A stretch of 45,770 bases of DNA. Source: Thraustochytrium sp. TN22. Lineage: Eukaryota > Sar > Bigyra > Thraustochytrida > Thraustochytriidae. The stretch spans positions 1-45,770 of the forward strand of contig JABLUY010000269.1 in NCBI GenBank assembly GCA_013306675.1, written 5' to 3'. The position numbers and the translations under genes were made by a program. Shown piece after piece: positions 4,978-45,613 of this stretch. Position 1 is the stretch's first letter, and the number at the start of each line of letters is the position of its first letter. Below the pieces are notes generated by a model, which was not told where the DNA came from, did not search any database, and saw only the letters and a list, made by a program, of their open reading frames with translations.

Positions 4978-5027
4978 CGCCCCTCTCCTTCGCCCGCGCG
5001 CGCTCGCCGCTGCTGCGCTGCTGCGCG

Positions 5028-5546: not shown

Positions 5547-5554
5547 TGACGTCA
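5547..5554. promoter_or_regulatory. TGACGTCA palindrome (CRE-like site)
   Basis: This is a perfect eight-base TGACGTCA, the core bound by many bZIP factors, in the flanks GGCCAG and GCGAGC. It lies 570 bases upstream of the RNA polymerase ATG. A second perfect copy occurs at 22770. Function is inferred only from the motif. Confidence 0.3.
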
Positions 5555-5685
5555 GCGAGCAAAGCAGAGAGTCTTGAAGAGATCAGTGAAGAGGCCGGAA
5601 AGGTGGTGCTCACTGATGCACGCCACTGGCGACGACGGGAATGCAACACCTTCTTGTGCGAAGAGGAGCGCACCACTGCCGGCGC

Positions 5686-5720
<35 letters not shown>
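5686..5720. repeat. (GGCA)n microsatellite
   Basis: An uninterrupted tetranucleotide run lies about 70 bases beyond the stop codon of the ZIP transporter, outside any gene. Confidence 0.9.
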
Positions 5721-5788
5721 TTCGGTCCGAGTCACACACCCACTCATCATGATTCATAGTCACAGTCAGTCTCTCAAGCAAAATTAGG

Positions 5789-7568
5789 CTAGGCGACGCG
5801 TGCGAGCAGCGTCATAGCGACGGTGCCGACGAGAAAACACATGAACTTGAGGATGCGGTACTCCTCGTCCTCGAACTCCTCGGCGAGGACCTCGACGAGC
5901 GCAATGTAGATGAAGCTCCCGGCGGAGAGGCCGAGCGTGACCACCTCGGTGCCGCCCTCGAGCAGCGCAAAGTGCTCGGCGGTGAGGCCAATGAGGATGC
6001 CGAGGGGAGCGGCGAAATTGTAAGCGATGAGCTCCGCCTTGACGGCGCGCGTGACAGGGTGCTGCGCAGCGGAGATGCCGAGCGCGAGTGACTCAAACAC
6101 CTTGTGGATGAGGACGGCGATAAAGGCGTTCTGCTGCGAGTGCAACTCCTCGATGGAGATGGAGCCGATCGTAAAGCCCACGATGAGCGAGTGCACCGAG
6201 AGCACCATGAACATGATAAAGGTGGCGAAGAACATGTGGCTGTGCTTTTCCGGGTGGTCGTGCAGGCCGGTGCTACCGAGGCTGTGCGTGGTGCCAAAGT
6301 CCATGGCCGCGGTGTCGGCGCCGGCACCAGCGCCGGCGTCGCCGCCCGCCGAGGCGTCCTTGGTCGTGCCGCCAGCGGCCATACTGGGTGCGGGCGCCAG
6401 CGCCTCAGGCGGCATCATCTCGCCGACGCCCGGTTCCGAGCTGGCGGTACGGCCGCCCATCTTGCGGCGGCGCGTCGCCGTTGAGGTCGGCAGCTCCGGC
6501 ATGCCGGCGCGCAGCCAGTTGTGTGCCTCGAGCATGTCCGGCCCGTCTTCCGCCGCCGCGTAGACGAGCGGCGCGTGCGAGAGCGTGCGACCTGGCATGC
6601 TCCCGAGCGACTTGAAGACGTCGAGCCGCCCCTGTAGGCGCAGCGACGCGAGGCCCGGGACCACGCACTTGCTACGGCACGCGTCCGGCCCTGCCAGGAA
6701 GAGCCCCTCTTCGGCGCCCGGCGGCAGGCACACCATGGTCATGGGCCCAGTCTGCAGTCGAGGGTCAACGCTGCCGTAGTGCCCGAAGCTGCGGCTGCGG
6801 TCCATCATGTGGATGGGGGCGGGCGGCGGTGCCAGATGGCTCAAGGCGTGCGCGTGCGGCACCGCACCATATCCGTGGCTGTGTCCGTGGCTGTGGCTGT
6901 GGCTGTGGCTATGGCCGTGACCGGACCGCTTTTTCTCCATCGTCTTCTCCTTCTTCGTCTTCGTCTTCGCCGCGCTGCCGGCGTCCGCGGCCAGGGACGC
7001 CGCGCCATCGCCCGCCTTGAGGGGCGTGCGCTCGTCCGCGGCGGGCCCTTCGTCGTTGCTGGGCTGGAGCCCGCGCGCCGCGTACGTGTCGATGCTTGTG
7101 GGCCCGACCGCAGCCTCACTCCGCTTCTCGCCGGCCCCTGGCTCGATTCGCACGTCGACGCAGTCCTCGTCGAGACACTCCTCGTCTCCGTGGTCGTCCT
7201 CCTCGCAGTCGTCGCGCTTAAGCAAGCCCATGTCATGCAGGAACGTGTAGTGGCTCGTGAAGCAGCTGCCGCTACTAAGCAGCCAAAAGAGGAGGCCGCT
7301 CTTCTCCACGAAGAACGGCACCAGGATGCCCACGAGGCAGTAGCAGATTGGCGTGAAGATGGCCATCTCCAAGACGCCCTTGGGCGAGGTGCTGTCCAGC
7401 GCCGAGCTCTTGAGCGAGACCTTGATGGCGTCGCCCAGAATGTGCGCCATGCCGGCGGCCAGCATCACGCCGCCCGCAAAGGCATTGCCGAGCGAGAGCC
7501 CGACGCTGACGACCTCGCCCAGGCGCGACTCGGATGCTTGCCGCTGCAGCTGCGGCAGCTCCGTCTTT

Positions 7569-7601
<33 letters not shown>

Positions 7602-7711
7602 TGCTTGTGGGCCGCGCGCCGTACCAGCACCGTTGGCAACGCCGTACCCGCCGCGCTCGCCGCCAGCAGCGCCACGGCCTGCAGGCACTTTTCTGTCGTC
7701 ACGTCCACCAT
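5789..7711 (-). CDS. ZIP-family metal transporter (SLC39-like)
   Basis: This 640-residue membrane protein of the ZIP family moves zinc or iron into the cytosol. The two signature helices are present: HSLIVGFTIG (TM4, near residue 507) and HKVFESLALG (TM5, near 536), which supply the His and Glu residues that bind metal. Three hydrophobic segments lie near the N-terminus, and three more follow TM5. The long cytosolic loop between TM3 and TM4 carries a His-Ser-Gly repeat at about residues 265-285, a usual metal sensor or buffer, preceded by an acidic Cys-containing stretch (DDCEEDDHGDEECLDEDC). A run of about 12 Gln follows TM1. The start used is the ATG whose product begins MVDVTTEKCLQAVALL. 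Another in-frame ATG at 8116 would add 135 low-complexity residues and is less likely. The metal specificity is not readable from sequence. Confidence 0.92.
7571..7604. repeat. Coding CTG/CAG run (polyglutamine)
   Basis: A trinucleotide run within the ZIP gene encodes about 12 consecutive Gln just after the first membrane segment. Such runs vary readily in length. Confidence 0.9.
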
Positions 7712-7741
7712 GACGACGCCAGCAGCGGCCGTAGAGCCGTA

Positions 7742-7744
<3 letters not shown>

Positions 7745-7777
<33 letters not shown>

Positions 7778-7779
7778 AC
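7745..7779. repeat. (GCT)n microsatellite
   Basis: A perfect trinucleotide run lies directly upstream of the chosen ZIP start codon. It would encode polyserine if translation began further upstream. Confidence 0.9.
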
Positions 7780-8182
7780 GGCTACGGCTGCTGCACTGCT
7801 GCAGCCGCCGCCGGCCGCCGCCGGCCGCCGCCGCCGCTGCTGCCGCCACCGCTCGCGCGCGCTCTTGGCAAGTCTGCCTGACTGTGGCTCGCGCGTCTCT
7901 TGACGGGAAGCCGAAGCCAAGGCCAGCCAAGCCCGCGCCGCGGGAGAGAGAGAGAGAGGGAGAGAGAGGAGAGAGGAGAGAAGGCTCTGAGGCGGGGGCC
8001 GCCGGGCCCTGGCCACGGCAAGAGGCACGGTGGCAGCCGCCACCGCTGGCCGAGGCGTCCCGGCCAACAAAGCAGTAAGCGCAGTAGAGCGCATCGCAGG
8101 GCAGCGCAAGGCGCATCGCAGCGCAGAGCAAAGCAGAACAGAGCTTCTGCCTCGGTGTCACGGTTGGCAACGCCGCTGCCAG

Positions 8183-8198
8183 TGAGTGGCCGCTCACA
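8183..8198. other. Short inverted repeat downstream of the coiled-coil gene
   Basis: GTGAG and CTCAC flank a six-base loop, 13 bases past the stop codon of the upstream minus-strand gene. It could form a small hairpin in the 3' untranslated RNA. Its role is unknown. Confidence 0.3.
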
Positions 8199-8210
8199 TG
8201 GGTCACTCAC

Positions 8211-17205: not shown

Positions 17206-18599
17206 ATGGCGTTCCGTGAGCTGCGAGGTAGGTGACGGAGATCGGGCAGACGACGCGAGAGAGAAGGGGAGAAACGAGATGCTGACAGCGCTTGCGCGAG
17301 GTCGCTTGCGACAGACTTCACGGAGTATATGAGGGTGCTGGGCTACCCGAGGCGGGTGTCGGTGGACAACTTCCGCACGCCCAACTTCCCGCTGGTGGCT
17401 GACATTCTGTACTGGATGGTGCACCGGTACGACCCGTCGGTGTCGGTGTCGGACGACATTAGCACGGAGGACTGCCGCGTAGAGTTCCTGACGAGCATCG
17501 CACAGGTGATGGGCGTCAAGGCGGCGGTGAAGCTGAACACGCGGCGACTCTACGCGGCGGACGGCAAGGCGGTCAAGGAGCTTCTCAAAGTGGCGAAGCT
17601 ACTGTATGCGGCGCACCAGGCGAACGTGTCCAAGTCGTTGACGAGCGACGGCGCCGAGGGCAAGGAGCAGGACGGCCAGCACGAGGACGCGTCCCGCGGG
17701 CCGGAGACGGAGGCCTCGTACAACCAGCTGCACGCGCGGCTGCCGGACGTGAAGGCGACGCGGCGGCTGGCGTCGCAGATCACGGAAAGCGGCGCGAAGC
17801 TCTTCGACCTGCTGCACGACGAGCGCGAGCTCTCGGCGGAACGTCAGCAGTGCCTGCGTTTCCTGGACAGCGTGTCGAACAAGCTGGACAGCGGTGCGGA
17901 GCACGGTTTCGTGGAGCAGCGCCTGGAGCAGCTGCTGGCGGCCGCGCGCGAGAACGTAGCGGCCATGGAGAAGCAGTGCCAGGACCTGGCGAGCGACGAG
18001 AAGACGCTGCAGGTGAAGATCAAGAAGCGGCAGAGCGAGCTGGAGCGCAACGACAAGCGGCTCAAGAGCCTGCAGAACGTGCGGCCGGCCTTTATGGACG
18101 AGTACGAGAAGCTTGAGGCGGAGCTCGAGAAGATGTACGAGGTGTACATGGAGAAGTTCCGCAACCTGGACTACCTGGAGCACCGCCTGGAGCTCTTCAA
18201 CCAGCGCGACCGTGAGAAGACGGAGCAGGCGGAGCGTGCCCGCAAGCGCATTCAGGTGAGCATCATGGAGAAGAAGGCGCGCGAGTTGCGCGGCGACGAG
18301 GACGACCACCTCTTCCAGGACGACGACGCCGACGAGGACGATCTGGGCGACGCCAACCCTGCGTCGGGCGCCATGGCGCAGGGCCGCCCGGACTCGCGCC
18401 TGAGCCGCAAGTCCTCCAGCGGTCGCGGGGGCAGCGCTAGCAACAACGGTGGCAGCAAAAACAACAATGCCAAGCCGTCCGCCGCCGCGGACGAGGAGAG
18501 CGACATCAGCGCCGAGAGCGATGTCTCCGAGGACGACGGCGCCAGCGGGGACTCCTCGCTCTCCGGCAGCCTTTCCGACGAGAATGACGACGATGTCAT

Positions 18600-18644
<45 letters not shown>

Positions 18645-18747
18645 TGACTCCTCCGGATCCTCGGATGTCTCCGACGAGGACGACGCGCTGGGCGCTGGCG
18701 CCGGCGCTGGTGAGAGCGACCTTGACGAATCCGACGATAATTTCTGA
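17206..18747 (+). CDS. CLUAP1: Intraflagellar transport protein 38 (CLUAP1)
   Basis: This is the IFT-B subunit IFT38/CLUAP1 (DYF-3, FAP22), needed to build cilia. There are two exons, 17206-17227 and 17315-18747, giving 484 residues. The short first exon encodes MAFRELR, and the split Asp codon joins it to DFTEYMRVLGYPRRVSVDNF, matching the known N-terminus of the family ([20 protein letters not shown] in human). The N-terminal calponin-like fold (about 1-130) includes FRTPNFPLVADILYWMVHRY and KLNTRRLYAADG. A coiled coil follows with RPAFMDEYEKLEAELEKMYE, a family hallmark. The tail is acidic, with a GAC-encoded poly-Asp run, and ends DESDDNF, nearly the same as human DESDNDF. Its presence implies a motile ciliated stage. 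It shares a 385-base divergent spacer with dynactin p150. Confidence 0.96.
17228..17314 (+). other. Intron in the IFT38 gene
   Basis: This 87-base phase-1 GT-AG intron (GTAGGTGA to GCGACAG) falls after only 22 coding bases. Splicing restores the conserved N-terminus of the family, which strongly supports it. Confidence 0.94.
18601..18648. repeat. Coding (GAC)n poly-aspartate run
   Basis: A nearly perfect GAC run inside the IFT38 acidic tail encodes about 16 consecutive Asp. An acidic tail is usual in this family, but this run length is a microsatellite. Confidence 0.9.
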
Positions 18748-24918: not shown

Positions 24919-27900
24919 TCAGGAGCTTGGCGCGTACGAGGGCGCACTTGCAAGCGCAGCCGCGGCCACGGGCGCCCGCGGCGACCGCCGACCTCGACTG
25001 CGACGCTTCTGCGCGGCGCGAGCCTGGAGGCGAGTGAGCATGTCCTTGGCGTCGCGTAGCAGACCTTGAGGGTCGTCCTTGGCCATGCCGAAGCGCACGG
25101 CCTGGTCGATGGCGTGGATCAGGGCCTCCAGGTCCTGGAGGACCATTGCCTCGCGCAGAATGTGTTGTGCATGCAACGTCTTGACGCGGTAAATCATGTG
25201 CTCCGCAGCGAGCACCTCGGGCGTGGTCAGGTTGAGCTCGCGGGCGCGCACAAGCGCCTCAATCACCTGGCGGTAGTGCTTCTTGCGCATGCCGGCCTTG
25301 AGCTTCTTAAGAACGATTCGCTCCTCACGGTGGCGGAGCGTGAAGATGGCGGAGATCTTGAACTTGCGAAGCGGCTTGAGTCGCCCCGGCGACCGGAGCG
25401 AGTCGGCGCCCGTGCTGCGCTGACTGCGAAAGGACGCGTTGCTGCCGCCGCCGCCGCCACCGCCACCACCCTGGTTACTGCCACTCAGGATGAGCCCTAG
25501 CCCACTCCCATGCGAAGCGCCGCGGTAGTGCCCGCCGGGACCCTTGTAGTCGTCCATAACCTGCGCAAAGGTGCTCTCCTGGGCCTCGAGCCCGGACCTC
25601 GCGAACGGCGACAGGGGCGGGTCCGAGTCGTCTGAGCCGCGCCGCGCATGCTGCCGGCCACCGGAGGCCGGGTTGATCGCCAGCGCCTGGCGCATGCTGT
25701 TGGGCGAAAGCTGCAGGAGCATGGACGTGAGCTGGTCGTGCGACTGGGTCGGCCGGCGCCCGTGGTCTTCATTCGGCCGCAGCAGCTCCGTGGACACACG
25801 CAGGTTGGCGCGCTTGCCGGACAACGTCGTACTCGAGTCGCGGCTGGACCGGCGGCTCAGCCGCCGCTTGCCCTTGGGGCCAAGGTCCTCGATCGACGTC
25901 GCCATAGCCCGCGCCTCCTGCTGCTCGCCGGCCGCCTGCTCGCTGCTGCCGCGCGTCGCCTGCTCGCGCTCGTAGTACGAGCCGAGGCCGCCCGCAGCCG
26001 GGCCGCGCCCGGTGTGCGGTGCCCGCCCGCTCTGATCGGTGTCCTCGCCGTCGTCTTCATCGTCCTCGTGCGCGTCGTCGTCGGCGTGGTAGCCGCGGTC
26101 CTCGTCGTGCTCGTGCTCGTCCTCATCGCCCGAGAGGTGATTGATGAAGACGGCTGCGTCCGGAATGAGCGCATCCTCGTCCTCGGTGCGCTCGTCGAGT
26201 GCGGAGATGAAGATCTCCTCGTCGGCGGCGTTCTCGTCCACGTCGCTGAGCGCCTTACACTCGTCTTCGTCCACCTCGCGCTCTTTGACCTCGGGCTCGT
26301 TGTCCTCGTCATCCTCGTCGTCTTCGTCCTCGTCATCCTCGTCGTCGACACCCCGAATGCCAAGGACCGTGACATTGATGGGCTCCAGGGCTTCGTCGCG
26401 CAGGTCGCCGCTGGACGCCAAGCGAATGAGCTCGGCGGCCGTCTCGGCGTCGACGCAGCCGGCGAAGATCTCGTCGGCATCGAAGTCGCCGTAGCGGTGC
26501 AGGTCGGCCTCAATCTCGAGGCGGGCGTCCCAGGCGTCAGCCAGCTCGGAGTCGGTCGAGATGGTGTCGGCCTCGTCCGTGTCGGCCGGGTCCAGGCAGT
26601 TGTCTGAGGCGCTGTACTCGAAGAGGTCGGCCTTGAGGCGCCAGGCGTCCTGCAGGCGGCGCACGGCGCGGCGCAGGCGGCGCAGACGCCGGCGGCAGAG
26701 CCGGCGGCGAACGTGCGCCTGCAGGCACGCGATGGCGCGCGAGGCGGTCCGATGCGCCCGCCAGGTCTCCTGGATGAGCAGCACTGCCTCGCGCTGCTGC
26801 CGATACGCCTGGTGCGCCCGGAAGCGCCGGAAGTTGGTCTGCACGAAGAGCACGGCTTGGACGCGCTTCTGCTCGCGCCGCGCCAGGACGGCACGCCGGC
26901 GGCGCAGCGCGCCGACCATGATGAGCACGCGCCGCGCCGCAAAGACGGCGCATGCGGTCTCCACGCTCTCCACGAGGTCGTCCGGCACGGCGGCGCGGCC
27001 GGCGTCGAGCTCGCGCAGATGGTCGTGCACCGTGGCGAGCGCGCCGCTGGCGAAGAAGACGCAAGTCTTGCCGAACTTGCACTGATCTGCGTCGGCGCCA
27101 AGGCTGCGCAAAATGCAGCGCACGACGATGCGCTCGAAGCCGGACCCGGCCGGCATCTTGGAGGCGGCCAGGCTGTGCGGCGCGAGGCCGGCTCGCAAGA
27201 CTGGGTCGAAGTGCCTGCGCAGTACCTCGTACGGGATGCGGCCGGGCAGGCCGGCCCGCAGGAGCTGCGCGGTCTGTGGCACGCTGAGGCAGGCGAGCTG
27301 GCGGGCGACGAACTTGGGGTCGAAGCCGGCCTTGGGGTCGAGGGCGGCGTTCGGCTTGATGCAACGCACGAACGAGCACTGCGCCTCGCGCACGACGAGG
27401 TCCAGCTGGCGCATCTGGTCCTCGAAGACAGCGGCGACGGACCGCGTCTTGGCCTTGGCGGCCGGGCGCTGGTGCTGTGACTTGAACGACGAGCGGCGGC
27501 TCAGGCCTGCGCCCGTGAAGAGCGCGTCCATGATGAACGACTTGTCGGGCTGCGCCGCGAAGAATGACTCGGCCTCGGGCGGCACGCGGTCGAAGTTCTT
27601 CTCGATAAAACCTTGCACCGAGTACGAGACGGCGCCGGCGTAGTGGTCCACGATGAAGGTCGTGGACGCGAGGCGCGGGTGCGGGTCCACGTAGCAGGCG
27701 CGGCCCTTAAAGGTGCGGTGCAGGTAGGCGAGCAGCTTCTTGTCGCTGGGCTCCGGCCCGACCGAGATGGTGTTGATGGCGGAGAGCAGGCCCATGGTGG
27801 CTGGGTGCGGCCGGCCGGACGGCGCGCGGAAGAGGTTGAGGCAGGCGACGCACTTCTCGTTGGCCGGTGCCGTCATGCTGCTGGTGTCGAGACCCTCTTC

Positions 27901-29274
27901 CTCGTACAGATTGAGCTCCGCGGCAAAGAGCTGGTCGTTAAAGGTGGTCTGCAGCGCCTCGTTGGCGAAGTTGATGAGCAGCTGCTCGAAGCTGTTCCGC
28001 TCAAAGCACTCAAAGCCAAAGATGTCCAGGATGCCGATGAAGCGCGGGAAGGTCTGTGAGAGTCGCTTCGCGTCGAATCCGTGCGAGTTGCCGAGCGAGG
28101 AGTTGATCTGCGCCACGAGCCAGTCAAAGAGCCGCTGATAGAGTGCCTTGGCCAGGGCGTCGCGCGTGCGCGCCGCCTCGTCCGCATCCCGCTGCGACAC
28201 CATGGTCTCGCCGCGCAGCACCATGGTGCGCTCGCAGACGATGCGCAGCAGGTCGTCCTCGCCGACGCCGAGCATCTCAGCGGCAGCCATGAGCGAGGGC
28301 CGCGAGGCCTCGGTGACGCGCGCCACGTTGCCTTCCTCGGAGTCTGCGTTGGAGAAGCGCACGCCCGTCAGGTGCAGGACGGCCGCCACGACGGCAAAGA
28401 CCTCGGTGCGGCGCGTCTGGTCCATGCCGAAGAGCTCCATGCTCTGGGCAAGGCGCGCAAACCCGCGCTCGTCCACGTTTGCGATGACCTTGGACGCGAA
28501 GTGGCCTTGGTACCGGTCGAGCCACAGCGTGCGGCGCAGTTGCTCATCCGCGCCGGCCAGGAGCTGATAAAAGATGTGGAAGCTGCGCTCCTGGTCGTCC
28601 ACGGCCACGACGCGCGAGCGCTCCAGCAGGTAAGTCTCCACCGCGGCGTGGCGGAAGGCGTGGTGGTGAGGTGCAAAGTACAGGTTGACGAATTTGCCGA
28701 AGCGCGAGGAATTTCCGTTGCTGACGGTCTTGGCGTTGCCAAAGGACTCCAGCATAGGCGATGCCGCGAGCAGCTGCTCGTCCACTGTGCATGCCTTGCC
28801 CGTGCGCAACACGAGGTGGCGAATGACCCGCTTGCTCGTCTCTGTCTTGCCGGACCCGGACTCCCCACTGACCACGATGCATTGGCTCTTGTCGAAGCGT
28901 TGCAGCTGCTGAAACGCGTACTCGGCCACGCTGAACGGGTGTGGCTTCTCCAATGCGCGCGCGCTGCCGGCGACGTCGAGCGGCTCGTCCACGTCCACGA
29001 GCGGGTTCACGGAGAGCAGCACGCGTCGAATGAAGGTGTACGGCTGGCGCATGACAAATCTCCGCTCCAGGTTGTGCAGAATGCTCGCCTCGTGGATGTG
29101 CAGGAGGTTGGCGAGGTCCTGCTCCTGCGACTCATCCTGGTGCGCGCACTCTAAGAAACCATTCTCCAGGCCCACTGCCTCGTTGGAGCCCAGCTTTCGC
29201 GCGCACCCGTCCGTCTCTGACAGCAGAGCGCGCGTCCATACCGTCTCCTCGTCCTTGACCCAGACCAGCGCCAT
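24919..29274 (-). CDS. Unconventional myosin heavy chain
   Basis: This is an actin-based motor of 1451 residues. The motor domain (about 50-750) has an intact P-loop GESGSGKT (137-144), switch I NGNSSRFGKFV and switch II DIFGFECFERNSFEQLLINFANE. The actin-binding and relay regions follow (for example QLDLVVREAQCSFVRCIKPN). The neck (about 770-880) has three or four IQ-like helices (VQTNFRRFRAH, IQETWRAHRTAS, LQAHVRRRLCRR) for light chains. The tail is unlike common classes: an acidic Asp/Glu region near 975-1010, a low-complexity Ser/Gly region, then a C-terminal helical module (about 1300-1440) with FTLRHREERIVLKKLKAG and HMIYRVKTLHAQHILREAM, and no long coiled coil, MyTH4 or FERM domain. 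The first ATG in frame is 29274. I infer a stramenopile-type class but cannot assign it. Confidence 0.93.
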   Translation of the reverse strand: MALVWVKDEETVWTRALLSETDGCARKLGSNEAVGLENGFLECAHQDESQEQDLANLLHIHEASILHNLERRFVMRQPYTFIRRVLLSVNPLVDVDEPLDVAGSARALEKPHPFSVAEYAFQQLQRFDKSQCIVVSGESGSGKTETSKRVIRHLVLRTGKACTVDEQLLAASPMLESFGNAKTVSNGNSSRFGKFVNLYFAPHHHAFRHAAVETYLLERSRVVAVDDQERSFHIFYQLLAGADEQLRRTLWLDRYQGHFASKVIANVDERGFARLAQSMELFGMDQTRRTEVFAVVAAVLHLTGVRFSNADSEEGNVARVTEASRPSLMAAAEMLGVGEDDLLRIVCERTMVLRGETMVSQRDADEAARTRDALAKALYQRLFDWLVAQINSSLGNSHGFDAKRLSQTFPRFIGILDIFGFECFERNSFEQLLINFANEALQTTFNDQLFAAELNLYEEEGLDTSSMTAPANEKCVACLNLFRAPSGRPHPATMGLLSAINTISVGPEPSDKKLLAYLHRTFKGRACYVDPHPRLASTTFIVDHYAGAVSYSVQGFIEKNFDRVPPEAESFFAAQPDKSFIMDALFTGAGLSRRSSFKSQHQRPAAKAKTRSVAAVFEDQMRQLDLVVREAQCSFVRCIKPNAALDPKAGFDPKFVARQLACLSVPQTAQLLRAGLPGRIPYEVLRRHFDPVLRAGLAPHSLAASKMPAGSGFERIVVRCILRSLGADADQCKFGKTCVFFASGALATVHDHLRELDAGRAAVPDDLVESVETACAVFAARRVLIMVGALRRRRAVLARREQKRVQAVLFVQTNFRRFRAHQAYRQQREAVLLIQETWRAHRTASRAIACLQAHVRRRLCRRRLRRLRRAVRRLQDAWRLKADLFEYSASDNCLDPADTDEADTISTDSELADAWDARLEIEADLHRYGDFDADEIFAGCVDAETAAELIRLASSGDLRDEALEPINVTVLGIRGVDDEDDEDEDDEDDEDNEPEVKEREVDEDECKALSDVDENAADEEIFISALDERTEDEDALIPDAAVFINHLSGDEDEHEHDEDRGYHADDDAHEDDEDDGEDTDQSGRAPHTGRGPAAGGLGSYYEREQATRGSSEQAAGEQQEARAMATSIEDLGPKGKRRLSRRSSRDSSTTLSGKRANLRVSTELLRPNEDHGRRPTQSHDQLTSMLLQLSPNSMRQALAINPASGGRQHARRGSDDSDPPLSPFARSGLEAQESTFAQVMDDYKGPGGHYRGASHGSGLGLILSGSNQGGGGGGGGGSNASFRSQRSTGADSLRSPGRLKPLRKFKISAIFTLRHREERIVLKKLKAGMRKKHYRQVIEALVRARELNLTTPEVLAAEHMIYRVKTLHAQHILREAMVLQDLEALIHAIDQAVRFGMAKDDPQGLLRDAKDMLTRLQARAAQKRRSRGRRSPRAPVAAAALASAPSYAPSS

Positions 29275-31140
29275 CCTCTCGCGCGCCCGCTGCGCTGCAG
29301 CAGAGAGAGCCTGCACGCGTACGCTCTCTCGCTCTCACTCTCGCTCTCGCTCTTGCTCTTGCTCTTGCTCTTGCTCTTACTCTCGCTCTCTCTCAGTCTG
29401 AGCCTCGTCGCCGCGACCGAGAGCGCCGCCGCGAGCAAGAGCGAGCCCACCGGGGCCCGCTGACTACTGCTGCCCCTGCCGCTCGCGGCCTGCGGCCTTC
29501 GAGCTGAGGCGAGGCGATGCGAGGCGCCGCGAGCGAGCAGGCGAAAGAGCGACCACCACGATGATGCAAGGTCGCCCTCGTCCCGCTAACTCCGTCCCGC
29601 CCACCTGCTGGGGGGCCGAGTGCTTGCCCTGGGTCCCGAACCTTGCAGGCGGTCAGTGCCGCCGTGCCACAGGCAATTCACAAAGTCGAACGAAGGCCTG
29701 CCACCTCCAAGGCGGTCCAACAGCCACGAGTGCCCTCGGTGCTTGCCGCGAGACTCCCCCAAGCTCGCGGCTCCGACGCTGCACGTCGTTGCTGGACTGC
29801 TGTCCACACGAAGGCCAAGAACGCCACCTCCGTCTCGTGTGCAGCGGGCGACGCCGCGACAGCATTGATTTTGGTGCCTGGGCCAGTGGGCTATAATGGC
29901 ACGCAGCAGCAGCATGGCTGCAGCATGGCAGCAGCACACGACATGGTAGCAGCAGCAGCACTTTGCAACTTACAGCTGCCACTGCCCGGTAGACGTGTAG
30001 CCTTTCCTAGCTCTAAGTCTTAGCTCTAGCAGCATTAATAAGCAGCAGCAGCAGCCGATCTCTCCGCACACCGGCTGTTTCTGGTGATGACAAGGAGCAA
30101 GCATGCGCCCAGCGAGCGACGTTATCTTCCGTCATGCACGGAGGCAATGGCGAACCGGCATAGATGGGGCCCGTGCAGGCTCGACTTGGAGCCTGGGCCC
30201 AGCCTCGCTTCCCGAGCTTGTCGCCCCAGCGTTCTTGACGCGCTCCGAGACCGCAACGTCTAGATCGATTGTTGCGAGCTCTTTGCAGTGCGCGCACACC
30301 GGGCAGCTCGCCAGTCAGTCAGCCGCCACTGGCAGAGCGCCAAAACAACCCCAGGCAACAAAAAGCGATAAAGGTGCACTGAGGTGCGTCTGGCTCTTCT
30401 GCAACTCACACATCACATCACATCACCTCAACCAACCCCCCCCCCTGCCCCTTCCCCTTTCCGTACTTTTAAGCGAGGCCCAGCCCTCGCTCAGAGTCTC
30501 TCTGCATCAAATTTGCACGCTCGCACATAACTTACACGCAGGCATGGAAGGGATGAGGCGGACGAATGCTGCGCACGAGTCGCAAGAACAGGACCACCGC
30601 GCGCGCCGTTACGGCGACCCCGCAGAGACTCGACGGTGGCGGAGAAAAATCAATGATGAGCGCCCTCCACACCACGCACAGCACAGCAAGTCGAAGACTT
30701 CGTGACCGCTTTCCGAGTCCGCGCGCGGCCACGGCGCTGCGCTTGGTCTCCCAGGGCGGCTGGCCTCCAGGCGGCTGCCTGCTTGCCCGCATGCCTGTCT
30801 GGCGTGCCTTTGCCTGGCTGCCCTGGCTGCAGGTGCCTGCATTTCCCCCTCCAAGACCTCCAAGCCGTTAATGCACATGCGTGGCGCATCGTGATGATGG
30901 TCCCGGAGCGTGGTACCCAGAGGCGGCGCTGCGTGACTGCGAAGGACTGTGAAGCACCTGACTGTGAAGCAGGTCGTGGTTCGCTTTTCTGAGGTACACA
31001 CCGCAACCCATGACCAGCGTGCGCGCTGATCTCTGAGTCTGGCGGTGAAGCCGCGTCTTTGATCAAGGCGCGCTGAGCGAGCGCGGCAGAAAGATCATTG
31101 CCGTGGCGTCGCTGGCCGGCCGCCGGCCGCCGCCGCCGCC
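29275..31140. other. Longest gene-free stretch in the window
   Basis: These 1.87 kb lie between the divergent myosin and ankyrin genes. The region is less GC-biased than its neighbours and contains GCAGCA clusters near 29905-29962 and 30041-30055, GGGCTATAATGG near 29887, a run of ten C at 30436-30445, and a CATCA repeat near 30410-30427. Open frames here (for example 30103-30705) have no family resemblance, and their codon use is unlike the real genes. I found no tRNA-like fold. A non-coding RNA gene is possible but not supported. Confidence 0.45.
29323..29396. repeat. (CTCTCG/CTCTTG)n pyrimidine repeat
   Basis: Hexanucleotide CTCTTG and CTCTCG units lie 50-120 bases upstream of the myosin start. 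On the myosin strand this is a GA-rich tract in the leader or core promoter. Confidence 0.85.
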
Positions 31141-38169: not shown

Positions 38170-41100
38170 ATGGTCTCGGCGGCGGCGGCGGCGTCCTCGG
38201 CGGCGCAAAATGGCGGCGGCGTGCAGATGAAGCAGGAGCTGGCGTTTTTGACGAACTACATCAAGCGCATCCGGCTCAAGGACTTCATGACGTACCATGA
38301 GATGGACCTGGTGCCCGGGCGCGGACTCAACCTCATCATCGGGCCGAACGGCACCGGCAAGAGCACGGTCATGTGCGCGCTGGTGCTGGGCCTGGGCGGA
38401 ACAGCCGAGCTGCTGTCGCGCGCCAAGGACCTGACGGGCTTCATCCGCAACAACGACCAGCCGCCTCTGCACCCGAGCACGGCGGAGATCGAGATCGAGC
38501 TCGTGTGCGGCGGCTCAGACAAGCCGCTCGTCATCAAGCGCACCCTACGTCGCGGCGAGGGCAAGTCGCGCCAGGCGCGCAACGCGTCCACCATCGAGGT
38601 GAACGGCGAGGAGTGCTCCCTGCAGGACCTGCAGGAGCGGATGCGCAAGGTCGGCATCCGCGTGGACAATCTGTGCCAATTCCTGCCACAAGACAAGGTG
38701 AGCATGTTCAGCCGACTCAACGAGAAGGAGCTCCTGGTGGAGTCTGTGCGCGCGGCCATCGGCGACGCCATGGTCAAGGAGCGGGACGAGATCTCTGAGC
38801 TGCAAAAGAAGCTCGGCGAATCCGACAACACTGCACAGCACGAGCAGGAGGCGCTGCAGCAGATGGAGACGCGCCTCGTGCAGCTCAAGCGCGAGGCGGA
38901 TGATTTCGAAAAGGTCGAGGCCATGAAGCGCACACTGTACTTCACGGACGCCAAGATCAAGTACGTGCAGTTTGACGAGGCGCGCACCAAATACAAGGAG
39001 GCCAAGACGCAGACGAAGGACCTCAAGGCCGCCTGCGTCAAGGCTAGCAGGGCCGAGGACGCTGCCAAGGCCGACCTCGACCGCGTCATCGCAGCCCAGC
39101 GCGACTCGGCGCCGGGCGGGGACAAGGAAGCCGACCGCCGCAGGCTGCAGGACGCGATCGGGGCACCACCTGCCTTCCGCGCGCACACCATAAAGTTCGA
39201 CGACGCTGCCAACAGGGCCATGGACGATATCAAGGACGTGGTGAACAAACGCAAAGCCGCGCAAAAAAAGGCGAGTGATGCGCACGCGGAGCTCGCGAGG
39301 CTGCAGGAGGGTCTCGAGAAGTGGAATCGCGAGAACGACGTCGATGCGCTCAAGCGGAAGCAGCAGGAGGCCAACGAGGAGAAGGAGCGCGTGCAAAAGG
39401 CTGTGGAGAAGGATCGCGCCGAGTACAGGGAGCTCGGCGACCGGATGAGCACCACTGCCCGGCAGCGGGATACGGCCCTTCAACAGGCTCGGCGAGCGGC
39501 CGAACGTGCCAAGTCCCAGACGAGCATCCTCGACAGGATGCACGGCGCGCACGACCTACGCAAGGCGTGGGGCCAGGTCGAGGCGCTCAGGGAGAGGAAT
39601 GAACTGGCCGGCAAGGTGTACATGCCGGTGCTCTTCATGAAGCCGCGCGACAAGCAGATCGCATCCTACGTGGAACGCCTCGTGCCGCGCAAAGTGCTCA
39701 CCACGCTGGTCTGCACCAGTGCGCAAGACCGCGAAAAGGTCATGGGCATCAGGGGCGTCAACGTCTTCATCTTGTCAGGCAACGCCACGCACACGAACGT
39801 CCGAAACCGCCCGCCCGCCTCCTTTCTGGAACAGATCGGAGCGCTCGGTTTCCTCGATGAGCTCATTGAGACGCCCAGGCCTGTGCTGGTTGCGCTGTGT
39901 GAGCTGGCGCACCTAAACACCTACGTCATCGGCGGGCCCGATACGGAGTCCCGCACCAGCGGCACCGGCCCGGGGCGCGTCGATGAGGAGGATCTCAAGG
40001 AGAAGCTCGAAGGCTTCAATCTCGCCACGCCTCACTCGACGTGGCGGTTCAAGCGCTCCAAGTTCAGCAACAAGGTATCGATCGACACCAAAGATCAGCA
40101 GTTCCTCCAGCCCAAGTTCCTCGGCCAGACCGAGGAGCTCGAAAAGGCTCAAGCCATGGTCAAGAAGTTCGAGGCCGACGCGGAAAAGGCCGCAAGTCAC
40201 CTCAAGAAGCTCGAAGAGGATCGGGCTTCTCTCAAGCCGCGCATCGACGACGCCGCTATCGCCGAGAAGAAATGCAGCGAGCGCCTGCAAGAGGCCCTGC
40301 AGGAGATCAAGGCGCAGCAGAAGATGCGCGTCCGCATTCGCAATGCCGAGGACGTCGTGCGCAGAGCCGAGGAACAAATGTCTGGGGACCCACGCGCCGC
40401 CGTGCAAACCCTCTTCAAGCAGGCCATCAAGGCCTGCGAGAACATCCATGCCCGCATGGAGCGGTCCGTTCAGTCCGTTTGCAGCGTCGACCAGAGCCTC
40501 GCCAATCACCTCGGCCGCCTCCTGCACGAGGCCGGCGCCGGCGCCAAGAAGGCGCTGGCAGAGCAGGTTCTCGCTGGCAAGAGGCAAGAGCGCCTGCGTG
40601 CAGAAGCCGCCTACAACACCCGCCAGCAGAAGGTCGAGAGCTTGAAGGAGGAGGCCCGCGTGCTCAAGGAAAGGTTCGAAAAGATCTACAAGAAGATGTC
40701 GAATGAGGAAACGGACGAGTTCGCGGAGATCGATGGCGCTGACCTCGACGCGCTCAGGGCGACCGTCAGCCTTCTCGAAGAGCGCATACGCAACGCGCCC
40801 ACCGACGAAGGCGTCGTGCAGCGCTACAAGGAAGTGCGCGCAAGCGTCGAGGAGCTCAGGGACAAGGTCAGCAAGCGCGAGCAGAACCAGGCCCAGCTCC
40901 GCGACGACGCCGCCACCAGGCTCGCCACATGGACGAAGCGCGTCAAGGCGCTCGTCAAGAAGGTCGACCACCACTTCACGAACTCCTTCGAGCGAATTCG
41001 GGAGAAGGGCTACGAGTGCGCAGGCCGCGTCGAGCTGCAGACCTCGGAATCTGACATCCTCCAGTACGGCCTCATTATCAAGATCAGCTTCCGCAAAGAC

Positions 41101-41547
41101 CAAGAGCCCCGTGCCCTCGATATCCGAGTCCAGTCCGGTGGCGAGCGATCGCTCGCCACTTTCCTCTTCATCCTGTCCCTCTCGGGCAGCGCGAACAGCT
41201 CCGGCATCGGCTGCACAGACGAGCTAAACCAAGGTCTCGACGAGGAGAAGGAGCGTCTCGCCATGCAGCAGCTCTTTGACTCCAAGGCCGATTCTCGCTC
41301 CGGACAGTTTTTCCTCATCACCCCCAAGCTGCTTGCCGGCATGACCTACCACGAGAACATCACCATCCACGTCATTTTTAACGGCCAGGGTGCCCTTCCC
41401 AAGGACAAGATGAGCATGGCCAACTTCCTCGAGGCTGCACGGACCGCCAACAAGCGTCGCCACCGGGAGGTCGGCGACCTGGTCGACGAGGAGGGTGACG
41501 AGAATGACGCCGCTTCTACGGCCAAGCGTCGCCGGGCCCGACACTGA
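38170..41547 (+). CDS. SMC5: SMC5 (copy 1), SMC5/6 complex ATPase
   Basis: This is a structural-maintenance-of-chromosomes ATPase of 1125 residues, the SMC5 arm of the SMC5/6 complex that handles joint DNA molecules and repair. The N-terminal head has LKDFMTYHEMDLVPGRGLN and Walker A GPNGTGKST (58-66). VDNLCQFLPQDKV is the SMC5 hallmark and separates it from SMC6. Two long coiled-coil arms flank a hinge (about 480-600), which includes LVPRKVLTTLVC. The C-terminal head has signature QSGGERS (988-994) and TDELNQGLD with D1017/E1018. The Walker B strand before DE reads IGCT, where SMC5 proteins normally have hydrophobic residues such as RVV. The tail is basic (AKRRRARH). The ATG at 38170 has GCC before it. 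A second, different SMC5 gene lies tail to tail 634 bases away. Confidence 0.93.
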   Translation: MVSAAAAASSAAQNGGGVQMKQELAFLTNYIKRIRLKDFMTYHEMDLVPGRGLNLIIGPNGTGKSTVMCALVLGLGGTAELLSRAKDLTGFIRNNDQPPLHPSTAEIEIELVCGGSDKPLVIKRTLRRGEGKSRQARNASTIEVNGEECSLQDLQERMRKVGIRVDNLCQFLPQDKVSMFSRLNEKELLVESVRAAIGDAMVKERDEISELQKKLGESDNTAQHEQEALQQMETRLVQLKREADDFEKVEAMKRTLYFTDAKIKYVQFDEARTKYKEAKTQTKDLKAACVKASRAEDAAKADLDRVIAAQRDSAPGGDKEADRRRLQDAIGAPPAFRAHTIKFDDAANRAMDDIKDVVNKRKAAQKKASDAHAELARLQEGLEKWNRENDVDALKRKQQEANEEKERVQKAVEKDRAEYRELGDRMSTTARQRDTALQQARRAAERAKSQTSILDRMHGAHDLRKAWGQVEALRERNELAGKVYMPVLFMKPRDKQIASYVERLVPRKVLTTLVCTSAQDREKVMGIRGVNVFILSGNATHTNVRNRPPASFLEQIGALGFLDELIETPRPVLVALCELAHLNTYVIGGPDTESRTSGTGPGRVDEEDLKEKLEGFNLATPHSTWRFKRSKFSNKVSIDTKDQQFLQPKFLGQTEELEKAQAMVKKFEADAEKAASHLKKLEEDRASLKPRIDDAAIAEKKCSERLQEALQEIKAQQKMRVRIRNAEDVVRRAEEQMSGDPRAAVQTLFKQAIKACENIHARMERSVQSVCSVDQSLANHLGRLLHEAGAGAKKALAEQVLAGKRQERLRAEAAYNTRQQKVESLKEEARVLKERFEKIYKKMSNEETDEFAEIDGADLDALRATVSLLEERIRNAPTDEGVVQRYKEVRASVEELRDKVSKREQNQAQLRDDAATRLATWTKRVKALVKKVDHHFTNSFERIREKGYECAGRVELQTSESDILQYGLIIKISFRKDQEPRALDIRVQSGGERSLATFLFILSLSGSANSSGIGCTDELNQGLDEEKERLAMQQLFDSKADSRSGQFFLITPKLLAGMTYHENITIHVIFNGQGALPKDKMSMANFLEAARTANKRRHREVGDLVDEEGDENDAASTAKRRRARH

Positions 41548-42181
41548 ATTTTGCCAAGCGCCCGCGGCTCGTCCCTCGTGTGTTCTCCTCTCTCTCCCCG
41601 TCTGTCGCGCCAGCCCCTGTAGGACTAAGTCGTAAGCAGTAACCGGTACACCCGAGAGCGCGCCTTGAGCGCCGAGGATCTGGGTGGGGCTCGGCGCTGC
41701 CGCCCAGCACGACCAGTGCCTTGATTTTGCTCGTCTGCTCGCGCTTCCGTGCTGGGTGAAAAGATGAAGAGACCCGGTGGGCCAAAAAAAAGAAGTGTGC
41801 CACCTGTCAAAAAAGTCATGTACGGTCGTGTGCGGCGGGCGCTCAGGGAGAGGAATGAACTGGCCGGCAAGGTGTACATGCCGGTGCGCGGTTCCTTGCC
41901 TCGACCAATCGCCGCGACCTCGATCCCTGTCGAATCGATACCAGATCTCGGTTCATCCCTTCCAAACCACCCAAAGGAGAGGAGAACAGCCTGCTCCACC
42001 ACCTTGAAGCAAACCCCAAAGACAAGCTCCGCTGCTGAAGCGGTATCATCAGAAGACATCCTGTCTCCCATGTGACGTTGAGAGACAGTGTGCACGGCGC
42101 CGTGTCCGAGTCGCGGCGCGCGGCGCAGATCCAAGCACAAGGCCAATCAAACCGTCCAAATCGCAAACATCGTGTCGGCCG
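41548..42181. other. Spacer between the two SMC5 genes, with an SMC5 fragment
   Basis: This lies between the stop codons of the two SMC5 genes. It contains an exact 50-base copy of the interior of SMC5-1 at 41838-41887. The surrounding 41745-42075 is less GC-rich than the genes and forms an open frame in which the copy is read in its original frame, but the rest resembles no protein I know. Confidence 0.55.
41838..41887 (+). pseudogene. Exact 50-base copy of SMC5-1 interior (39582-39631)
   Basis: The two segments are identical over 50 bases, same orientation, and encode ALRERNELAGKVYMPV in both places. Flanks do not match. It is a fragment, not a functional gene, and marks a past copying event between SMC5-1 and the spacer. 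Confidence 0.85.
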
Positions 42182-45100
42182 TCAAGCCAGAATGGCCGAA
42201 ATCGGCGCTTCGGCCTCGATACGGCGGCGCTTCGCAGCGCGCAGAAACTGAGCAAAGTCGACCTTGTCCTGTGGCAGCGAGCCGGAACCGTTAAAGACGA
42301 CATGAACGGTGGTGTTCGGGTGGTAGCGCAGGCCGGTAAGGAGCTTGGGCGTGATGACGAAGACCTGCCCGCCGTCGTGCGTGTCGCCCGACGAGCTGAA
42401 GAGGTGCTGCATGGCGATGCGCTCCTTGTCCTCGTCCATGCCGGCGTTGACTTCGTCGCAGATGAGCCAGCATTTCCGGGACATCTTCACGAGCGCGAGC
42501 AGGTAGAGAAAGGTGGTGAGCGAGCGCTCGCCGCCGGACTGCTCGTGCACGCTGAGGCGACGAAGTTCCTGGTCTTTGCGGAAGCGCACGCGAATGACAA
42601 TGCCGCAGTCTGCCGTGTTGGCCTCATTGGCCTCGAACTCGACTGCGCCGCCGCACTGGTAGCCTTGGTCCGCGACGTGGGCAAAGCCAGCCCGGAAGTT
42701 GGCGTCCACCTCCTTGACGAGCTGCGCGACGCGGTTGCGCCAGGCCGTGACGCGAGCCTGAATCTTTGCACCGCGGTCCTGCTGGCGATCGCGTGCCGTG
42801 GCAAGCGAGGCCTCCAGGTCGGCAATCTCCACCGCGAGGCGCTCCCAGGAGGCGATGGCCTGCGGGTCCGGCGTCACGGCCTCCACCTTGGCGCGATGCA
42901 TCTGCAGAAGCGCGTGGACTTCGTCTCTGCTCTCGGGGAGGGCGGCGATCTTGCCCTCCTCGTCCTCAGACAGCTCGCCGAGCTGCTTGATGAAAGCTCG
43001 GCGGCGCGCGCGATTCGCTTCGCGCTGCTCATTGAGGTTCGTGTGCTTGTTCTCGGTGCGCTGGCGCGTAGTTTGCGCCTCAAAGAGACGCGCTCGGAAG
43101 CCCGCCAGGAGCGTGCGGTGCCGCGCCTGGCGCATAGTGTAGAGCGCAACGTCCTCGAGCGCCGGGAGCGCGGCGGCAGAGGTCGCCGTGACCTTGGCCA
43201 GCAACGCGGCACTTCTTTCAAGGATCTGGAGCGCTCGAGCGCTCGCAGTGCGCGCGGCCTTGTTCAGGTCGCCATGGGGCTTGCTGCGCTCCAGCGCCTC
43301 GAGCTGCTTGCGGAAGGTGGCCGCTCTGACCTTTTGATCCTTGTGAAAGGTGAGCAACTTGGCGATGCGGCCGTGCTCGCGGTCAAGCGGCGCCACGGCC
43401 TCCTGCTCCGCGTCGCGCTGCGCCGCGAGATGGCGCCGCTCCTCCACGAGGGCCGCCAACTTGCGCCGCGAGTCCGCGAGCACGGCTTCTGCGGCGCGGA
43501 GGCGCTCCGTGGCGCCCTCGTCATCGCGACCGTCGCTGATCAAGACGGCCTTCTTGAGGCCAGAGGCGAACTCGTTCGTGGACATAAAGGCGCTGCGCGC
43601 GCCGAAGCTGGATCGCCGCACCGAGTACGATGTAAAGGGCGTCTGCACCTGGAGGCCCTCGAAGAGGCGATCGCGCTCCTCCTTGGGCAGCGCCAGAAAG
43701 GCCGCGCCGGCCTCGGCAGGGCCCACCACGCAGCGGTGGATGGAGGTGGTGTCGCGCAGCGCCTGCAGCACGGCGGGCGGCGCCTCGATGAGCTGGTCCA
43801 GGTAGCCGTAGAAGCCGAAGCGGTCGAGTTGCGCCTGGGAGAGGGTGCGGCGCGGCTCGTCGGGCTGCGCAACGCACAGCACATCGACGCCGCGCAGACC
43901 GTAGAGGGCCTGCCTGGCCTCCTGGGACGAGGTGGTGACCAGCGTGATGAGCTTCTTCACGCTCACGCAGCGTTCGAAGAAGGCAGCCGCATCTGGCGAG
44001 GACGCGCGCACCTCCATAATGGGCAGGAACGTCTCGCCGTGCGCCTCGCCGGACTCCTTGCGCGCGCGCACCACGCTCCATGCGCGCGTCACGGCACTGT
44101 TGTTGCGCACCTTGGCCAAGACGGCCTCCTTGTCGTGCAGCTGAGCGGACGCGCGGTCGCGCGCCAGGAGTGCCTTCTTCTCCTTGCTGCTCTCCGTGCT
44201 GATGCGATCGTCCACGGCTCTGACTCTGGAGCCTGCATCCCGGATCCCCACCCTACGCGCGTCCAGTTCCGCCGCCACACGCGCCATCTCCTTCCGGAGG
44301 GCGCTGGTGTCGTTCTCCGTCTCCCAGGCCTCCACCGTGGCTTCCGCCTCGCGCACGCGCATCTCCAACTGCGTGATGCGGTCCGCGTGCGCCTTGTGCG
44401 CAGCGCGCTCGTCGCGCCAGCCGTCCAGAACCCCGTCCACCTGGTCCGAGATCTCCGAGGCGGCCTTGCGCAGGTGCGGGGGCTGCAGTGCGGCCACCTG
44501 GATTGCGCGCTCGGCCTGCGCGGGCTGCCGGTCCGACTGGATGGCCTTTTCTTGCTCGGCGAGCGCGCGTTGCGCGTGCTCGTGCTGCTGGATCGCCTGC
44601 TGGCGCTCCACCTTGAGCGCATCCATCTGCTCGCGCAGCGTGGTGCTCTCTTGCTTGAGCGCCACGATCTCCAGGTGCAGGAGGCGCTTCTCGCACAAGC
44701 CGATCTGCTCCAGCGCCGCAGCGCGCGCCTCCAGCGCCTCCACGCGCGGCGCGAGGCTCTCCCTCTCGCGCTGCTTCTGCGTGAGCACCAAGGCCTCTGT
44801 ATCCACGTCATTCGCGACCGTGCGCAGGTGCTGTTGCTCCGTCGCCAGATTGGCCTGCTCCGTGACAGCTTCGTCGCCCAGGCCGGCGCGGAGCGTCTCC
44901 GTGAGCAGCTGCTTCTCGTCCATGCGGCTGAACATGGTCACCTTGTCCTGCGGCAGCACCTGGCACAGGTTGTCCACCTGCGTGCGGTATCGCTGCTCCA
45001 GGAGCTTGCGCACCTTCTTCTCCGACGAAGCCTTGCCGTTCAGGCGCCACGTCGACACGGCCGAGTCGCGCGTCGTGCGCCGCGTCGCGGGCTGGGCGGC

Positions 45101-45613
45101 CTGCTTCTTCCTCGTCGTCTTCGTCTTCGTCTTCTTCTTCTTCTTGGTCTCGTTGCGCCCCTCGCGCCCGCCGCGGTTGAGCGACGCCGCCGTCGTGTTC
45201 TCCCCGTCCGACACGGAAGCAGACGACGAGTCGGACTCCGAACCAGAGTCGTCGCCCTCGCCGCCCGCGCGCGGGATGACGGTGCCGGCCTTGACGCAGT
45301 CGATGATGCGTTCCACCACCGTGTTGCCCCGCTCCGGGTCGTGCAGCTCCACCTCGATGCGCGCTTGCTTCTTCCCAGTCTTGACAAACCCGGACAGGTC
45401 CGCGGCGCGTCCCAGCAGCTTCGGCTTGCCGCCCAGCCCGAGCGCCAGCGCCAGCAGCGTCGTGGACTTGCCCGCGCCGTTCTTGGCGATGATGAGGTTC
45501 ACGCGCGGGCCCGCGTGCAGCGTCGCGTCGTCGTACGTCATGAAGTCGCGCATGCGCAGCCGCCGCACCGCGCCCACCGCGAACGCCGCCGCCTCCTCGC
45601 CCGCGCCCGCCAT
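42182..45613 (-). CDS. SMC5 (copy 2), diverged SMC5 paralog
   Basis: This is a second SMC5-type ATPase of 1143 residues. VDNLCQVLPQDKVTMFSRM is the SMC5 hallmark; the N-terminal head aligns without gaps to copy 1 (34 of 64 identical, from VRRLRMRDFMTY onward, by manual count). Walker A reads AKNGAGKST (43-51), with Ala where nearly all SMC proteins have the first Gly; the critical GKST remains. The C-terminal head is canonical: QSGGERS (S1026) and Walker B WLICDE (D1053/E1054). Residues about 110-180 are an extra low-complexity insert, first acidic/Ser-rich, then Lys/Thr-rich, absent from copy 1. Coiled coils and a hinge-like centre (SVKKLITLVTTSSQEARQAL) are present. The first ATG in frame is 45613. 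It is probably functional because the frame is long and intact. Confidence 0.88.
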   Translation of the reverse strand: MAGAGEEAAAFAVGAVRRLRMRDFMTYDDATLHAGPRVNLIIAKNGAGKSTTLLALALGLGGKPKLLGRAADLSGFVKTGKKQARIEVELHDPERGNTVVERIIDCVKAGTVIPRAGGEGDDSGSESDSSSASVSDGENTTAASLNRGGREGRNETKKKKKTKTKTTRKKQAAQPATRRTTRDSAVSTWRLNGKASSEKKVRKLLEQRYRTQVDNLCQVLPQDKVTMFSRMDEKQLLTETLRAGLGDEAVTEQANLATEQQHLRTVANDVDTEALVLTQKQRERESLAPRVEALEARAAALEQIGLCEKRLLHLEIVALKQESTTLREQMDALKVERQQAIQQHEHAQRALAEQEKAIQSDRQPAQAERAIQVAALQPPHLRKAASEISDQVDGVLDGWRDERAAHKAHADRITQLEMRVREAEATVEAWETENDTSALRKEMARVAAELDARRVGIRDAGSRVRAVDDRISTESSKEKKALLARDRASAQLHDKEAVLAKVRNNSAVTRAWSVVRARKESGEAHGETFLPIMEVRASSPDAAAFFERCVSVKKLITLVTTSSQEARQALYGLRGVDVLCVAQPDEPRRTLSQAQLDRFGFYGYLDQLIEAPPAVLQALRDTTSIHRCVVGPAEAGAAFLALPKEERDRLFEGLQVQTPFTSYSVRRSSFGARSAFMSTNEFASGLKKAVLISDGRDDEGATERLRAAEAVLADSRRKLAALVEERRHLAAQRDAEQEAVAPLDREHGRIAKLLTFHKDQKVRAATFRKQLEALERSKPHGDLNKAARTASARALQILERSAALLAKVTATSAAALPALEDVALYTMRQARHRTLLAGFRARLFEAQTTRQRTENKHTNLNEQREANRARRRAFIKQLGELSEDEEGKIAALPESRDEVHALLQMHRAKVEAVTPDPQAIASWERLAVEIADLEASLATARDRQQDRGAKIQARVTAWRNRVAQLVKEVDANFRAGFAHVADQGYQCGGAVEFEANEANTADCGIVIRVRFRKDQELRRLSVHEQSGGERSLTTFLYLLALVKMSRKCWLICDEVNAGMDEDKERIAMQHLFSSSGDTHDGGQVFVITPKLLTGLRYHPNTTVHVVFNGSGSLPQDKVDFAQFLRAAKRRRIEAEAPISAILA

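What the first reader, a model, noticed from the sequence alone, without database searches (positions are those of the whole stretch)
38170..45613. Two diverged SMC5 genes lie tail to tail
Both genes carry the SMC5-specific VDNLCQ-LPQDKV motif and SMC5-type C-terminal heads, yet their N-terminal heads are only about half identical. Most eukaryotes have a single SMC5, which pairs with SMC6. Two long-lived SMC5 copies raise the possibility of two SMC5/6 complexes, or of an SMC5-SMC5 pair, in this lineage. The arrangement suggests an old inverted duplication.
Basis: partly seen in the sequence, partly recalled or inferred. Interest (0 to 1): 0.75.

Follow-up and report, generated by a model that had tools for sequence, protein, structure and literature searches.

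The report
Two ancient SMC5 copies, one SMC6
A thraustochytrid-like protist carries two long-diverged copies of the DNA-repair motor protein SMC5 lying tail to tail, with only one copy found of its partner SMC6, which suggests two versions of the Smc5/6 machine built around shared parts.

Summary
Confirmed: the window holds two open SMC5-class genes, A (38170-41547, +) and B (42182-45613, -), tail to tail and 29% identical. Both match solved SMC5 chains far better than SMC6. The genome is labyrinthulomycete-like (nearest named relative of A: Hondaea SMC5). The split is old: A groups with Hondaea, B with an unnamed public protein (P0123), and A+B as sisters is rejected (p-AU 0.00012). I found one SMC6, one Nse1, one Nse3, one Nse4, one strong Nse2, and no third SMC5. 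B and P0123 share features absent from 120 other SMC5s: Walker A AxNGAGKS for GPNG[TS]GKS, CQVLPQ for CQFLPQ, and a long charged loop in the N-head (bounded stretch 89 and 52 residues, others 11-20). Both window copies keep the SMC5-type hinge latch that grips SMC6 elsewhere, with Phe for Tyr. A has an unusual in-frame Walker B strand. Best reading: two alternative SMC5 subunits share one SMC6 and the Nse parts, B being the derived isoform; this is inferred. An SMC5-SMC5 pair is unlikely but not excluded. Only this genome is shown to hold both copies. SMC paralogues, including a Trichomonas SMC5 pair, are known: a new variant of a known kind.

The parts
38170..41547 (+). SMC5 copy A, 1125 aa
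   Evidence: ORF and translation; SMC5 in PDB 212 bits; sister to Hondaea SMC5 P0003 100/99
42182..45613 (-). SMC5 copy B, 1143 aa from Met at 45613
   Evidence: ORF and translation; SMC5 in PDB 196 bits; sister to P0123 100/100
38341..38367 (+). Walker A of A, GPNGTGKST (canonical)
45461..45487 (-). Walker A of B, AKNGAGKST; first Gly to Ala, shared with P0123 (AMNGAGKST)
   Evidence: 120 of 120 other SMC5s have Gly-Pro at these two columns; P0004 is GRNGAGKST
38662..38700 (+). SMC5 motif of A, VDNLCQFLPQDKV
44939..44977 (-). SMC5 motif of B, VDNLCQVLPQDKV (Val for a Phe seen in 120 of 120 others)
45062..45298 (-). disordered insertion in the N-head of B (residues 106-184), an acidic Ser-rich run then a Lys/Arg run
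   Evidence: bounded stretch 89 aa in B, 52 in P0123, 11-20 in 120 others; pLDDT below 50 over residues 109-182
41182..41223 (+). altered in-frame Walker B strand of A, SGSANSSGIGCTDE (usual ...PFRVVDE)
   Evidence: still modelled as a strand, 1013-1017
40036..40095 (+). SMC5-type hinge latch hairpin of A (KRSKF)
   Evidence: strands 623-629 and 636-642
43571..43633 (-). SMC5-type hinge latch hairpin of B (RRSSFG)
   Evidence: strands 661-667 and 675-681
41548..42181 (.). 634-bp intergenic spacer between the two 3' ends
41838..41887 (+). exact 50-bp copy of part of gene A (39582-39631)

Best explanation
An inverted duplication of SMC5 within the labyrinthulomycete-like lineage gave two lasting paralogues. 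A is the canonical-lineage copy and B the derived copy. Both are SMC ATPase arms that dimerise through an SMC5-type hinge latch with the single SMC6 and use the single Nse1-Nse3-Nse4 set and Nse2, so the cell can build two alternative Smc5/6 complexes. B's altered Walker A turn and its charged N-head loop probably give that complex a different ATP cycle or regulation. Shown here: the two genes, their class, the age of the split, the partners found in one copy, and the motifs. Inferred: SMC6 binding by both, alternative complexes, and altered ATPase or regulation in B.
For: SMC5 class by sequence and by fold: the top four Foldseek hits of both models are 8i4x_A, 7qcd_A, 7yqh_A and 8i13_A, entries whose chain A I read as SMC5. 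Tree: six-row clade 100/99 and 100/100, A+P0003 100/99, B+P0123 100/100. A+B as sisters rejected, 175 lnL units, p-AU 0.00012. Partners: SMC6 at C177, Nse4 C196 (25), Nse1 C199 (26), Nse3 C222 (27), Nse2 C452 (28); no third SMC5. The latch Ser is kept and an aromatic stands at the Tyr612 site in both (PMC5290277). Both keep the Walker A Lys-Ser, SGGERS, the Walker B Asp-Glu and ITPKLL and ordinary GC3 (0.85 and 0.88). The B traits (Walker A Ala, Val in CQVLPQ, N-head loop) are shared by two distant proteins.
Against: No expression, binding or ATPase data. Only this genome is shown to hold both copies. P0123's organism is unknown, and P0004's place is unresolved (p-AU 0.45 and 0.32 for alternatives). 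A and B keep 67 and 68 of 84 near-invariant SMC5 columns, fewer than any of the 120 others (lowest 76, though the columns were defined on those 120) and fewer than P0003 (73) and P0123 (70), so either copy could be under relaxed constraint. At the latch Tyr is replaced by Phe in both. Partner counts come from an assembly that may be incomplete, and the SMC_N family search itself failed to list B (13 of 37 candidates scored).
Confidence: 0.66

Rival explanations
1. SMC5-SMC5 pair: A and B dimerise with each other, making an SMC6-free complex.
For: Two SMC5s lie side by side and are modified at different ATPase motifs (A at Walker B, B at Walker A), so a heterodimer could combine different head sites.
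Against: One SMC6 is present, with ordinary-looking motifs by eye, and one Nse4. Both copies keep the SMC5-type latch, and neither scores as SMC6.
Confidence: 0.08
2. One copy is a relic under relaxed constraint while the other does the whole job.
For: A's Walker B strand has lost residues kept in 120 of 120 others while Hondaea's copy is normal, and A's end branch is 1.6 to 1.8 times P0003's (1.0 v 0.61; 1.18 v 0.64). B has lost the D-loop Gln kept in P0123 and in 120 of 120 others.
Against: Both frames are fully open over 1125 and 1143 codons with ordinary GC3. The catalytic Lys, Asp, Glu, the signature and the latch Ser are kept in both. The B lineage has persisted with shared traits in another sequence.
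Confidence: 0.18
3. B came by transfer or hybridisation from another labyrinthulomycete and landed beside the resident SMC5.
For: A and B are not sisters and no other organism is yet shown to hold both.
Against: Tail-to-tail adjacency is simple for a local inverted duplication and would be a coincidence for a transfer. Codon third-position GC of B (0.884) is ordinary for the genome.
Confidence: 0.08

Closest known systems
Hondaea fermentalgiana SMC5 (P0003)
   Same: orthologue of A: 39% identity, sister at 100/99
   Different: usual Walker B PFRVVDE and Tyr at the latch; a second copy in Hondaea was neither found nor excluded
Unnamed public SMC5 P0123
   Same: orthologue of B: 41-43% identity, Ala Walker A, Val in CQVLPQ, N-head insertion
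   Different: usual FRIVDEINQG and Tyr at the latch; shorter insertion
Trichomonas vaginalis Smc5a/Smc5b
   Same: two SMC5 genes in one protist (PMC2488364, passages read)
   Different: listed there among recent duplicates, 53% nucleotide identity, tracing to within parabasalids; an independent event
Yeast Smc5 in the Smc5/6 holo-complex (7qcd, 8i4x)
   Same: among the best solved matches by sequence and the best by fold
   Different: single SMC5 (recalled); no B-type N-head insertion or Ala Walker A (recalled)
Paramecium SMC4-1/SMC4-2
   Same: SMC paralogues with separate jobs in a protist (PMC10700549, abstract start in search listing)
   Different: a condensin subunit, not SMC5

Membership tests
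SMC5 | Closer to SMC5 than to SMC6 or SMC1-4 | tested here: met
   PDB bits: A 212 v 55, B 196 v 43; tree with own SMC1-4 and SMC6
SMC5 | VDNLCQ-LPQDKV-type motif | tested here: met
   A VDNLCQFLPQDKV; B VDNLCQVLPQDKV with Phe to Val
SMC5 | Walker A GPNG[TS]GKS, copy A | tested here: met
   A is GPNGTGKS
SMC5 | Walker A GPNG[TS]GKS, copy B | tested here: not met
   B is AKNGAGKS: Lys-Ser kept, first Gly, Pro and Thr/Ser not. I treat this as a derived change within SMC5, since every other class test places B there; it does not by itself define the family
SMC5 | Signature SGGERS, Walker B Asp-Glu and ITPKLL | tested here: met
   present in both; the strand before Asp-Glu is altered in A, and NQG is NAG in B
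SMC5 | Loop C latch (S. pombe Ser610, Tyr612) that grips SMC6 | tested here: inconclusive
   Ser in both (79 of 120 others in this alignment); Phe in both where 104 of 120 others have Tyr, 13 His, 2 Phe, 1 Leu; hairpin modelled in both
Smc5/6 complex | SMC6 and Nse1-Nse4 encoded in the genome | tested here: met
   Nse5/6-type subunits not searched
Smc5/6 complex | Physical binding of each SMC5 to SMC6 and Nse4 | not testable with these tools
   needs biochemistry

The most novel reading that the evidence does not exclude
Some thraustochytrids run two Smc5/6-type machines that share SMC6 and the Nse subunits. The B-type motor has a conserved altered P-loop (A-x-N-G-A-G-K-S), a charged N-head loop open to phosphorylation, and perhaps an unusually well conserved hinge, so it would act as a distinct, fixed isoform with its own job (meiosis, zoospore stage, or defence against foreign DNA) and not as a redundant spare.
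Probability: 0.3. Interest if true: 0.68.

Novelty: new variant of a known kind. Interest (0 to 1): 0.45.

Why it matters
SMC paralogues with separate jobs are known for SMC1 (meiotic SMC1B, named in PMC11431564 passages) and SMC4 (Paramecium, listing), but as I recall Smc5/6 is usually described with one SMC5. A lineage with two long-lived SMC5s, one with a fixed change in the P-loop, would allow a natural test of which SMC5 features serve which Smc5/6 function. Thraustochytrids are cultured and used in biotechnology, so removing each copy is a realistic experiment.

Tried and rejected
Frameshift origin of A's odd Walker B: the other two frames, read by eye, give no PFRVV-like peptide, and the segment has 92% GC at third positions, so it is in frame; an assembly error cannot be excluded without reads.

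Gene conversion or general convergence of A and B: not supported; sites with A=B unlike P0003=P0123 number 11 against 13 in the control pattern, and the looser counts are 56 against 45 to 62. The shared Tyr-to-Phe change at the latch is one of those 11 and is only a weak hint of a common SMC6 partner.

Special hinge of B: 51% identity to P0123 against 32% for A-P0003. Of 2145 other pairs with head identity of 52-60% only 1 is as high; but only 5 of those also match on coil identity, and 1 of the 5 is as high, so it stays a lead.

Domain trees: heads and coils agree on A+P0003 (100/99, 97/97) and B+P0123 (100/99, 100/100); the hinge alone recovers B+P0123 (99/98) but not A+P0003. P0004 stands with B in all three, weakly (82/78, 72/80, 76/76).

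Relatives of B: two searches gave 7 hits each; P0003, which scores 451 bits with P0002, was in neither, so these lists are far from complete and the lack of a Hondaea B copy means nothing. One search listed 120 of 883 hits. Viral contigs: 29 pattern matches, none a relative.

Papers: thraustochytrid + SMC5, 0 papers; labyrinthulomycetes + structural maintenance of chromosomes, 0 papers; SMC5 paralogue terms, 15 papers, of which I opened three by passages: Trichomonas (relevant), a mammal selection study and a turbot study whose 'SmC5a' is another gene. The other 12 were judged by the listing only.

Full report
What is there. The window is an entire 45,770-bp contig (C187) of a 37.9-Mb, 453-contig genome. 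Gene A (38170-41547, +) and gene B (45613 down to 42182, -) are single open frames of 1125 and 1143 aa, pointing at each other across 634 bp. No tool names the organism. A's best relative is the SMC5 of the thraustochytrid Hondaea fermentalgiana (39%, E 2.7e-217), and in the trees A, B, P0003 (Hondaea), P0004, P0005 and P0123 form one clade (100/99, 100/100). Only Hondaea bears a name among them; calling the clade labyrinthulomycete is my inference.

Age of the split. A and B are 29% identical. In the 45-row tree A joins Hondaea (100/99) and B joins P0123 (100/100), a protein listed with one 3.7-kb contig. An 18-row tree repeats this, and holding A and B together costs 175 log-likelihood units (p-AU 0.00012). 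The duplication therefore predates these splits. Whether P0004 is on A's side, on B's side or outside is open: it stands with B (98/94) and in three domain trees, and its Walker A, GRNGAGKS, shares the Ala and the loss of Pro with B, but one search leaves it open and does not reject the alternatives (p-AU 0.45 and 0.32). P0005 branches first. In no organism but this one are both copies seen, because the searches could not list relatives exhaustively.

Partners. Own-genome searches found one SMC6 (C177), one Nse4 (C196), one Nse1 (C199), one Nse3/MAGE (C222) and one strong Nse2-type SP-RING (C452), with three weaker zf-Nse matches of which two pass the cut-off. Protein searches with A and with P0123 returned only A, B and the SMC6. 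Frames for SMC1-4 and RAD50 were also recovered (these names are my reading of the sequences). Limits: six-frame searches of an assembly that may be incomplete; the SMC_N family search scored 13 of 37 candidates and did not list B, which is why the protein searches, in which all candidates were scored, carry the argument.

Anatomy of B. B and P0123 share an altered Walker A (AKNGAGKST and AMNGAGKST) where 120 of 120 other SMC5s have Gly-Pro, a Val in CQVLPQ where 120 of 120 have Phe, and a long charged loop between two N-head strands: the bounded stretch is 89 aa in B and 52 in P0123 against 11-20 in 120 others, 20 in A, 27 in P0003, 14 in P0004 and 13 in P0005. In both B proteins the loop holds an acidic, Ser-containing run followed by Lys/Arg. 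These are heritable traits of a B lineage, not noise in one assembly. B alone has NAG for NQG after the Walker B; P0123 and 120 of 120 others have Gln.

Anatomy of A. Walker A is canonical, but the strand before the catalytic Asp-Glu reads SGIGCT instead of the usual PFRVV and the region is one residue longer, while Hondaea's copy is usual. The codons are in frame with GC-rich third positions, and the model still draws a strand there (1013-1017).

Partner choice. In fission yeast the SMC5 loop C latch (Ser610, Tyr612) grips SMC6, and changing both to Gly is lethal (PMC5290277; abstract, passages and section 6 read). A has KRSKF and B RRSSFG: the Ser is kept and Phe stands for Tyr in both, while P0003 and P0123 have Tyr. 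Own SMC6 aligns its RPYEI stretch with the FDY stretch of a yeast SMC6 (by eye). This favours SMC6 as the partner of both and speaks against an SMC5-SMC5 pair, without proving either. The Nse1-contacting loop described for yeast Smc5 (PMC9458440, passages) is present in both, with about five extra residues in all six proteins of the clade.

State of the genes. Of 84 columns at least 95% constant among 120 SMC5s, A keeps 67, B 68, P0003 73, P0004 73, P0123 70 and P0005 70; the lowest of the 120 keeps 76, though the columns were defined on those 120. GC3 is 0.847 and 0.884, against 0.838-0.929 in ten other frames. So SMC5s of this clade are divergent in general, and this genome's two copies somewhat more so. 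Each might have shed constraint once a second copy existed, which fits divided labour or slow decay of one.

Comparison. SMC5 duplication as such is not new: Trichomonas has Smc5a and Smc5b, listed as recent duplicates, with ESTs reported for both (PMC2488364, passages). Diatoms are tabulated with one SMC5 and one SMC6 entry each (PMC4647503, passages). Within the held library two searches found no paper that names SMC5 together with thraustochytrids, or SMC proteins together with labyrinthulomycetes. The Arabidopsis SMC6A/SMC6B pair is recalled and seen only in a search listing.

Noticed in passing
window 39582-39631 and 41838-41887: Exact 50-bp direct repeat: a piece of gene A (start of the hinge) stands again 290 bp past A's stop codon; these are the only two places found in the genome within 3 mismatches. 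Recent templated insertion or assembly artefact.
   Followed up: partly
window 41182-41223: In-frame replacement in A of the Walker B strand; its Phe and last Val are kept in 120 of 120 other SMC5s. Among the proteins aligned it is seen in this genome only.
   Followed up: partly
A residues about 944-949 and the matching part of P0002, P0003, P0004, P0005, P0123: All six SMC5s of the clade carry about 5 extra residues in the loop equivalent to the Nse1-contacting W/F-loop of yeast Smc5.
   Followed up: no
window 1906-5781 (-), 5792-8206 (-), 17329-18744 (+), 24922-29316 (-): Neighbours by Pfam: single-subunit (T7-like) RNA polymerase, ZIP zinc transporter, Cluap1 (ciliary), myosin head; 6 of the 10 frames tested had no Pfam match.
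   Followed up: no
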